From the NCBI GenBank assembly GCA_019683805.1, contig JADGHQ010000001.1, positions 1 through 64,000 on the forward strand: a stretch of DNA of 64,000 nucleotides, in the 5' to 3' direction. Position 1 is the stretch's first letter. Each line of letters begins with the position of its first letter. The notes under the pieces are model-generated. The model searched no databases. It saw only the letters and a list, made by a program, of their open reading frames with translations, and had not been told where the DNA came from. Origin of the DNA: Thermoleophilaceae bacterium. GTDB taxonomy: Bacteria; Actinomycetota; Thermoleophilia; Solirubrobacterales; Thermoleophilaceae. Positions 60,672 to 63,893 of the stretch are shown piece by piece. The position numbers and the translations under genes were made by a program.

Positions 60672-63600
60672 GTGGGCGACGGGAACGGAAAGCCGGGCCG
60701 CAGACTGCCGCCGCTGCTGCGCCAGCTGCGCGACCCGCTCGGGCTTGCCTTCGCGGCGCGCTCCCGCCGCTCGGAGACGCTCACCCCGCGCACCAGGACC
60801 GCCGACGAGGTCGTGCGCTCGATCTGCCCGTACTGCGCCGTCGGCTGCGGCCAGAGGGTCTACGTGAAGGACGGAGAGGTCGTCCAGATCGAGGGCGATC
60901 CGGACAGCCCGATCTCGCGCGGGCGGCTGTGCCCGAAGGGCGCCGCGTCCGAGAGCTACGTGAACAGCCCCCTGCGCGAGTACCGGGTGAGGTACCGCGC
61001 CCCGTACGCAACGGACTGGCAGGAGCTCTCGCTCGACCGCGCGATGGACATGATCGCCGAGCGCGTGATCCGCACGCGCGCCGAGACCTGGGAGGAGGCG
61101 GACGCTCAGGGCCGCCGGCTGGCGCGCACCCGGGGCTTCGCCTGGCTCGGCGGCGCGACCCTCGACACCGAGGAGAACTACCTCATCAAGAAGCTGTTCA
61201 CCGCCCTCGGCGCGGTCCAGATCGAGAACCAGGCGCGCATATGACACAGCTCCACGGTCCCCGGTCTGGGGACCTCGTTCGGCCGGGGCGGCGCGACCAC
61301 CTTCCAGCAGGACCTCCAGAACTCCGACGTGATCGTGATCCAGGGGTCGAACATGGCGGAGTGCCACCCCGTCGGCTTCCAGTGGGTGATGGAGGCCAAG
61401 CTGCGCGGCGCGAAGATCATCCACGTCGACCCGCGCTTCACCCGCACGAGCGCGCTCGCCGACATCCACGTGCCGATCCGCGCCGGCACCGACATCGCCT
61501 TCCTCGGCGGGATCGTGAACCACATCCTGCAGAACGACCGCTGGTTCGAGGAGTACGTCCGCCACTACACCAACGCGGCCGTGATCCTCGACGAGGGCTT
61601 CGAGGACACCGAGGACCTCGACGGGTTCTTCTCCGGCTGGGAGCCTGACAGGGGCCAGTACGACAACTCGACCTGGTCGTACGCGGGCACGGGACCCGTC
61701 GCGGCCGGCGGGCACAAGGAGCAGGGCGCCGCCGTCTCGGGCGAGCAGGCGCACGGAGCCCACGGCATCACCCTCGAGCGCGGGCGCCCGCCGCAGGAGG
61801 ACGAGACGATGCAGCACCCGCGCTGCGTGCTCCAGGTCCTCAAGCGCCACTGCAGCCGCTACACGCCGGAGATGGTGGAGCGGATCTGCGGCATCCCCCG
61901 CGAGCTGTTCCTCGAGGTGGCGGAGGCGCTGTGCGAGAACTCGGGCCGCGAGCGCACCGGCGCCTTCTGCTACGCGGTCGGCTGGACGCAGCACACCGTC
62001 GGCGTGCAGTACATCCGCACCGCGGCGATCGTCCAGCTCCTGCTCGGGAACATGGGCCGGCCGGGCGGCGGCATCCTGGCGCTCCGCGGGCACGCGAACA
62101 TCCAGGGCTCGACCGACATCCCGACGCTCTACAACATCCTGCCCGGCTACATCCCGATGCCGCACGGGCACTCGGCCGGGAGCCTCGACGCCTTCGTCCG
62201 GTCGAACGCGCCCGAGACCGGCGCGTGGGGCTCGATGAAGGCGTACCTGGTGAGCATGCTCAAGGCGTGGTTCGGGGACGCCGCGACCGGGCGGGACGAG
62301 TTCGGCTTCGGCTGGCTGCCCCGGATCGACGGCGACCACTCCAACTACGCGACCTTCGACCGCATGCTCGACGGCGAGGTGAAGGGGTTCTTCGCCGTGG
62401 GGGAGAACCCGGCGGTCGGCTCGGCGAACGGCAAGCTGCACAGACTCGCCCTCTCGCGGCTCGAGTGGCTCGTCGTGCGCGACACCACGATGGTCGAGAC
62501 GGCGACGTTCTGGAAGGACTCGCCCGAGATCGAGACGGGCGAGCTGAGGCCCGAGGAGATAGCGACCGAGGTCTTCTTCCTGCCCGCCGCCGCGCACACC
62601 GAGAAGGACGGCTCCTTCACGAACACGCAGCGGCTGCTCCAGTGGCACCGCAAGGCGGTCGAGCCGAAGGGCGACGCGCGCTCGGACCTGCAGTGGATAT
62701 ACGACCTCGGCAGGCGCATCCGGCGCAGGCTCGCCGCCTCGAACGAGGGGCGCGACCGCGGGATCCTCGCGCTCACCTGGGACTACCCCACGCAAGGGCC
62801 GCACGGCGAGCCCGACGCCGAGGCCGTGCTGCGCGAGATCGGCGGCCGCCGCGCCGACGGCACGTTCGTAGCGCGCTACGAGGAGCTCGCGGACGACGGC
62901 TCGACGAGCTGCGGCTCTTGGATCCACGCCGGCATCTGCGCGGACGGCGTCAACCAGGCGGCGCGCCGCAAGCCCGGCGGCGAGCAGAGCTGGGTGGCGC
63001 CCGAATGGGGCTGGGCCTGGCCGGCGAACCGCCGCATCCTCTACAACCGCGCCTCGGCCGACGCCGCCGGCAGGCCCTGGTCGGAGCGCAAGCGCTTCGT
63101 CTGGTGGGACGAGCGCCAGGGCCGCTGGACGGGCCACGACGCCCCGGACTTTGTCGCCGAGAAGCCGCCCGGGCACCGGCCGCAGGGCGGCGCGAAGGGC
63201 ATGGAGGCGCTGCGCGGCGACGAGCCGTTCATCGTCCAGTCGGACGGCCGCGGCTGGCTCTTCGTGCCGACGGGGCTGATGGACGGCCCGCTGCCGACGC
63301 ACTACGAGCCGCACGAGTCGCCGTTCCCCAACCCGCTCTACGAGCAAGGGCAGAACCCGGTCAGGCAGCGCTTCCACCGGCGGGAGAACCCCTACAACCC
63401 GACCTTCCCCGACCAGGGGTGGGAGGTGTTCCCGTACGTGCTCACGAGCTACCGGCTCACCGAGCACCACACGGCCGGCGGCATGAGCCGCAGCGTGGCC
63501 TACCTGTCCGAGCTGCAGCCCGAGCTCTTCTGCGAGGTCAGCCCCGAGCTCGCGGCGGAGCGCGGGCTCGAGCACGGAGGGTGGGCGACGATCGTCACCT

Positions 63601-63893
63601 CGCGCACGGCGATCGAGGCGCGCGTGCTCGTGACCGACCGCATCCGGCCGCTGCGCGCCGAGGGGCGGGCGGTCCACCAGGTCGGCCTGCCCTATCACTG
63701 GGGAGGCCGCGGCCTCGTGACCGGCGACGTGGTGAACGACCTCTTCCCGCTCGCGCTCGACCCGAACGTCCACATCCAGGAGGCGAAGGCCGCGACCTGC
63801 GACATCCGCCCGGGCAGGCGGCCGCGCGGACCCGCGCTGCTCGCGCTGGTCGAGGGCTACAGGCGCAGGGCGCAAGGCAGGGGGACGCCGTGA
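60672..63893 (+). CDS. fdhA: Formate dehydrogenase, large subunit, selenocysteine-containing (UGA read-through)
   Basis: This is the molybdopterin subunit that oxidises formate to CO2. The frame from GTG 60672 (1073 residues) is broken only by TGA at 61242-61244, codon 191. The protein context on both sides, IENQARI-U-HSSTVPGLGTSFGRGGATTF, is the active site of FdnG/FdoG-type enzymes, where Sec or Cys binds Mo. A SECIS-like hairpin follows. The [4Fe-4S] ligands C52-x2-C55-x3-C59-x27-C87 lie in ICPYCAVGCG and RLCPKG. The C-terminal molydopterin-binding domain is complete (LSELQPELFCEVSPELAAERGLEHGG). No twin-arginine signal is visible, so it is probably cytoplasmic. The stop overlaps fdhB. Confidence 0.9.
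61242..61274 (+). promoter_or_regulatory. UGA codon with bacterial SECIS hairpin
   Basis: After the UGA (61242-61244), GGTCCCC (61256-61262) pairs perfectly with GGGGACC (61268-61274) around the loop GGTCT (61263-61267). The E. coli fdhF SECIS has the same GGUCU apical loop, recognised by SelB, and the same 18-nt spacing from UGA to loop. The bulged U of the E. coli stem is not obvious here. The position inside the coding frame is as expected for bacterial SECIS elements. Confidence 0.85.

What the first reader, a model, noticed from the sequence alone, without database searches (positions are those of the whole stretch)
61242..61274. Formate dehydrogenase decoded through UGA as selenocysteine with a SECIS hairpin
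The sequence shows one in-frame TGA at codon 191, exactly where Mo-binding Sec or Cys sits in FdnG/FdoG enzymes, with conserved protein on both sides. Directly downstream, a 7-bp perfect stem carries the apical loop GGTCT, which I recall as the SelB-recognised loop of E. coli fdhF, and the UGA-to-loop distance is the same 18 nt. Automated annotation would split this gene in two or call it a pseudogene. selA, selB, selC and selD are not in the window, so the genome should hold them elsewhere. The lack of the usual bulged U may mark a lineage-specific SelB/SECIS pairing.
Basis: partly seen in the sequence, partly recalled or inferred. Interest (0 to 1): 0.82.

Follow-up and report, generated by a model that had tools for sequence, protein, structure and literature searches.

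The report
Selenocysteine-containing formate dehydrogenase gene
An actinobacterial formate dehydrogenase gene reads an internal stop codon as selenocysteine, using a small RNA hairpin and a complete set of selenium genes elsewhere in the same genome; this is a real but well-known arrangement.

Summary
An in-frame TGA (61242-61244, codon 191) interrupts an otherwise intact fdhA (60672-63893, 1073 codons) at the position of the Sec of E. coli FdnG. A perfect 7-bp hairpin with loop GGUCU (61256-61274) follows at the same 18-nt spacing as E. coli fdhF. Among 104 UGA-containing genes of the family the hairpin covaries (25 double-sided changes against 6.4 in shuffles) and the loop U is kept in 104 of 104, although that codon choice is about 10% elsewhere in the same genes. 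Relatives with Cys lose the hairpin, and the two Cys-only genomes lack selA and tRNA-Sec. Three Blastococcus relatives carry TAG there, with a CUA tRNA and the same hairpin, a published recoding. The missing bulged U is genuine and family-wide but falls inside the published bacterial SECIS model, so it is not an anomaly. The enzyme is a new member of a known kind (NCBIfam NF041513); a selenium-dependent actinobacterial FDH has been studied experimentally. A side observation may deserve follow-up: this lineage's SelB seems to lack two winged-helix domains.

The parts
60672..63893 (+). fdhA: formate dehydrogenase alpha subunit, 1073 codons, GTG start, UGA (Sec) at codon 191, terminator TGA 63891-63893
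   Evidence: NF041513 1859.6 bits; one TGA inside; frame and codon number. The start codon is inferred, not shown.
61242..61244 (+). in-frame UGA decoded as selenocysteine
   Evidence: aligns with Sec of E. coli FdnG 1KQF; TGA at this site in 104 genes of the family, TAG in 3, Cys codon in 3
61256..61274 (+). SECIS hairpin: stem 61256-61262 / 61268-61274, loop GGUCU 61263-61267, 18 nt after the UGA
   Evidence: covariation; only match of the family's covariance model in the genome, 71.6 bits
63890..64000 (+). start of fdhB-like 4Fe-4S subunit, GTG start overlapping the fdhA stop; continues past the window (307 aa), followed by an NrfD-like membrane subunit
   Evidence: TIGR01582 187 bits, below its cut-off; PF13247 and PF03916 on L023

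Best explanation
The gene encodes the Mo/W-bis-MGD catalytic subunit of a membrane-linked respiratory formate dehydrogenase. Its active-site ligand is selenocysteine, inserted at the UGA by the standard bacterial route: SelA and SelD make Sec-tRNA-Sec(UCA), and SelB carries it to the ribosome and binds the hairpin just downstream of the UGA through its C-terminal winged helix, so that the UGA is read as Sec and not as stop. Shown here: the gene set, the codon position, conservation and covariation of the hairpin, and loss of the hairpin and machinery with Cys replacement. Inferred: actual Sec insertion, SelB binding, cofactor, direction of catalysis and membrane attachment.
For: fdhA family match with one TGA and alignment to Sec of FdnG. 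selA and selB lie side by side on C35, selD on C80, tRNA-Sec with anticodon UCA on C112. In the class, 48 of 52 over-cut-off matches carry an in-frame TGA, and 44 of 47 TGA-bearing genomes have a selA match. The two genomes with only a Cys FdhA, G157 and G278, lack selA, a selB match at E<=1e-60 and tRNA-Sec. Hairpin: 104/104 UGA genes pair at 5 of 7 positions and 103/104 at a sixth; 25 double-sided changes against 6.4 in shuffles, 0/500; loop codon GGU/AGU in 104/104 against 8.7% and 11.4% elsewhere in the same genes. Blastococcus TAG genes keep the hairpin and their tRNA-Sec has anticodon CUA. The published bacterial SECIS model (PMC13188914) is met on all four criteria.
Against: No expression or mass-spectrometry data. 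The genome is a fragmented assembly (134 contigs, 95% complete). One relative, G077 (97% complete), carries the TGA but shows no selA, no tRNA-Sec and no selB at E<=1e-60; this is unexplained. The hairpin of this one sequence alone is not significant by energy.
Confidence: 0.96

Rival explanations
1. A sequencing error or nonsense mutation: the gene is really a Cys enzyme (TGC/TGT) or a pseudogene.
For: A single base separates TGA from TGC/TGT, and draft assemblies contain errors.
Against: The same TGA occurs at the same site in 103 other genes from independent genomes, isolates included. The frame is otherwise intact over 1073 codons. A full sel gene set is present. The hairpin is conserved by covariation.
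Confidence: 0.02
2. UGA is read, but as another amino acid by a near-cognate or suppressor tRNA without Sec machinery; the hairpin is a by-product of the conserved, GC-rich peptide TVPGLGT.
For: 12% of synonymous redraws of this peptide form a 7-bp stem.
Against: Covariation at synonymous positions and invariant rare GGU/AGU codons need selection on the RNA. The tRNA-Sec anticodon tracks the codon: UCA with TGA, CUA with TAG.
Confidence: 0.01
3. The bulge-free SECIS and the shortened SelB form a distinct, co-evolved recognition pair private to this lineage (compatible with Sec decoding, but a different reading of its details).
For: Position 17, the bulged U in E. coli, is base-paired and covaries here (C-G, U-A, G-C, U-G). 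SelB of this genome lacks about 140 profile columns between domain III and the last two winged helices.
Against: The same bulge-free hairpin occurs in Amycolatopsis and Acidothermaceae, whose SelB is about 570-600 aa, as well as in short-SelB genomes, so the two features are not coupled.
Confidence: 0.08

Closest known systems
Actinobacterial Sec formate dehydrogenase (NCBIfam NF041513 formate_DH_Act; Actinomycetospora chiangmaiensis FDH1, PMC7176365; Corynebacterium aurimucosum fdnG, PMC2830990)
   Same: Formate dehydrogenase alpha subunit with Sec at the metal-ligand position, sel genes in the genome, FdhB and membrane subunit beside it; in A. chiangmaiensis formate removal depends on selenium and the proteins are detected.
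   Different: Here the sel genes are not beside fdhA; the organism is a different lineage within the phylum. Sequence identity to these two published enzymes was not measured.
E. coli FdnG/FdhF and the fdhF SECIS
   Same: UGA at the aligned position, loop GGUCU, 18-nt spacing, SelB-dependent route (inferred).
   Different: Continuous stem with no bulged U17; only about 39% identity for FdnG-like genes of enterobacteria; no recognisable twin-arginine motif by eye; SelB lacks the first two winged helices.
UAG-selenocysteine of Geodermatophilaceae (PMC5330540, reporting earlier work cited there)
   Same: Same fdhA family and same hairpin in Blastococcus.
   Different: Codon TAG and anticodon CUA there; TGA and UCA in this genome.

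Membership tests
Selenocysteine-containing formate dehydrogenase alpha subunit | Full-length FdhA/FdnG homology on both sides of the codon | tested here: met
   NF041513 1859.6 bits, positions 7-1067 of 1067; TIGR01553 945.7 bits over its cut-off
Selenocysteine-containing formate dehydrogenase alpha subunit | UGA at the Mo/W-ligand position aligned with Sec/Cys of relatives | tested here: met
   alignment to 1KQF Sec; Sec/Cys/UAG rows
Bacterial Sec-decoding trait | selA, selB, selD and tRNA-Sec in the genome | tested here: met
Bacterial SECIS (model as stated in PMC13188914) | 3-9 nt loop, 4-16 bp upper stem, G in first two loop positions, 16-37 nt spacing, MFE at or below -7.5 kcal/mol | tested here: met
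   5-nt loop GGUCU, 7 bp, 18 nt, -15 kcal/mol
E. coli-type SECIS with bulged U17 | unpaired U in the upper stem | tested here: not met
   position 17 paired and covarying in the family; E. coli sequence read
Selenoprotein | selenium / Sec in the expressed protein | not testable with these tools
   needs 75Se labelling or mass spectrometry

The most novel reading that the evidence does not exclude
In this actinobacterial class SelB has, in most lineages, lost its first two winged-helix domains, replaced by a short Pro/Glu-rich linker, yet still serves a SECIS at the unchanged 18-nt distance with a continuous, bulge-free stem: a slimmed-down Sec-insertion complex that would show which parts of SelB domain IV are dispensable.
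Probability: 0.4. Interest if true: 0.4.

Novelty: new member of a known kind. Interest (0 to 1): 0.2.

Why it matters
It is a clean example of Sec decoding and rescues a gene that naive ORF calling cuts in two. The set of relatives adds a useful detail: in this family the position of E. coli's bulged U17 is base-paired and covarying, so a bulge there cannot be a general requirement for bacterial SECIS function.

Tried and rejected
Rfam scan of the window: no family reached its threshold. Single-sequence folding energy: not significant. Synonymous-codon simulation: 12% give a 7-bp stem by chance, so hairpin presence alone was not used as proof. Search of the own genome with a covariance model of the hairpin for further selenoproteins: only this site; the model is built from fdhA and would miss SECIS of other families. 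'Two TGA' in relative L031: the second is its ordinary terminator. Structure prediction of this SelB was not attempted because its locus came from the genome search, which the predictor does not list as an accepted source. Literature searches for shortened SelB gave nothing, in an open-access subset only.

Full report
Observation. The window carries an fdhA frame from a likely GTG at 60672 to a TGA at 63891-63893 (1073 codons), interrupted only by TGA at 61242-61244, codon 191. The translated protein scores 1859.6 bits against NCBIfam NF041513 (cut-off 1400) and 945.7 bits against TIGR01553 formate dehydrogenase-N alpha. In the alignment with E. coli FdnG (PDB 1KQF) the TGA residue falls on the X, which stands for Sec, in NQARVXH / NQARI-U-H. 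The hairpin GGUCCCC-GGUCU-GGGGACC lies at 61256-61274. The E. coli fdhF sequence, read from NC_000913, has the same loop at the same 18-nt distance.

Is it more than chance? The hairpin in this single sequence is not strong evidence. The 44-nt fold has z = -0.58, and redrawing synonymous codons gives a 7-bp stem at that place in 11.7% of draws, because the peptide TVPGLGT is GC-rich. The comparative evidence is strong. I extracted the site from 110 genes: 30 from the class search (including this one) and 80 named loci. 104 have TGA, 3 have a Cys codon and 3 have TAG. In all 104 TGA genes stem positions 2, 3, 5, 6 and 7 are paired; position 4 is paired in 103; position 1 is optional. On 58 distinct sequences the named structure has 94.3% of cells paired and 25 double-sided changes, against 6.4 in shuffles (0/500 reach it), and sliding the partner by one column drops pairing to about 61%. 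Pair 4 shows C-G, U-A, G-C and U-G; both of its sides are third codon positions (Val, Gly), so these changes are silent in the protein. The loop codon is GGU or AGU in 104 of 104, while GGU is 8.7% of Gly codons and AGU 11.4% of AGY Ser codons elsewhere in the same genes. The three Cys genes have lost the hairpin.

Machinery. The genome (G000, 134 contigs, 95% complete) has selA (512 bits) and selB (291 bits) side by side on contig 35, selD (380 bits) on contig 80, and on contig 112 a tRNA-Sec of 68.5 bits whose anticodon ARAGORN reads as UCA.

Association. In a sample of 299 genomes of the class, 50 have a match over the NF041513 cut-off; 48 of the 52 listed matches carry in-frame TGA. Of the 47 genomes with a TGA copy, 44 have a selA match. 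The two genomes with only a Cys copy (G157, G278) have no selA, no selB match at E<=1e-60 and no tRNA-Sec. G298 has both a Cys and a TGA copy and keeps the machinery. One exception, G077 (97% complete), has the TGA but no selA, tRNA-Sec or selB found at those thresholds; I cannot explain it beyond assembly gaps or a recent loss.

A natural control. In three Blastococcus genomes (L123, L127, L176) the site is TAG, the hairpin is intact, and the tRNA-Sec found by the Rfam model has anticodon CUA (ARAGORN labels it tRNA-Pyl). This is the published UAG-Sec recoding of Geodermatophilaceae (PMC5330540). Codon and anticodon change together while the hairpin stays, as expected if the hairpin directs Sec insertion.

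At the column that corresponds to E. coli U17 (a known bulge, from general knowledge of the fdhF SECIS) the base is paired and covaries throughout the family, so this is not a quirk of one gene. It is not an anomaly for bacterial SECIS elements: the published model asks only for a 3-9 nt loop, 4-16 bp stem, a G in the first two loop positions, 16-37 nt spacing and MFE at or below -7.5 kcal/mol (PMC13188914), all met here. The same hairpin occurs with long SelB (Amycolatopsis, an Acidothermaceae MAG) and with short SelB, so it does not mark a private pairing.

Context. fdhA is followed, with overlapping stop and start, by a 307-aa 4Fe-4S protein (TIGR01582 187 bits, below its cut-off) and an NrfD-like membrane protein: the layout of a membrane-linked respiratory FDH. 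The physiological role is inferred. The closest experimental precedent is Actinomycetospora chiangmaiensis, where formate removal depends on added selenite and FdhA1, SelA and SelB were detected in the proteome (PMC7176365). C. aurimucosum has a comparable annotated cluster (PMC2830990).

Annotation claim. The statement that automated annotation would split the gene is only partly right today: a dedicated NCBIfam model spans the UGA, and some relatives on plasmid records are annotated as one fdh/fdnG gene. I did not see the annotation of this genome itself, nor check whether those plasmid relatives have UGA at the site.

Side observation. SelB here is 519 aa. Against a profile of long SelBs it matches columns 6-346 and 498-573 only, TIGR00475 likewise matches 2-342 and 531-580, and Pfam finds only the last winged helix, while E. 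coli SelB shows four winged-helix matches. Pairwise, residues 413-516 align with E. coli 503-606, so the last two winged helices are retained. Most of the SelBs taken from this class share the gap, but four members of one family match the profile end to end, which suggests secondary loss. I found no report of this in the open-access papers searched, which is not proof of novelty.

Verdict. Observation confirmed; interpretation supported; a new member of a known kind, of low surprise.

Noticed in passing
L001:1021-2577 (-), SelB of this genome; also L089, L093-L096, L099, L100, L102-L105: SelB is about 490-525 aa and lacks roughly 140 profile columns corresponding to winged helices 1-2 of E. 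coli SelB, with a Pro/Glu-rich linker instead; four relatives (L085, L087, L088, L090) match the full-length profile.
   Followed up: partly
L123, L127, L176 (Blastococcus): TAG in place of TGA at the Sec codon with intact SECIS hairpin and a tRNA-Sec with anticodon CUA; ARAGORN labels the tRNA as tRNA-Pyl. Known from the literature.
   Followed up: yes
genome G077, contig C24:24329-27421: fdhA with in-frame TGA but no selA, tRNA-Sec or strong selB match found in a 97% complete assembly.
   Followed up: partly
genome G298, C1: Holds both a Cys and a TGA version of fdhA; the TGA copy lies close to selA, selB and tRNA-Sec.
   Followed up: no
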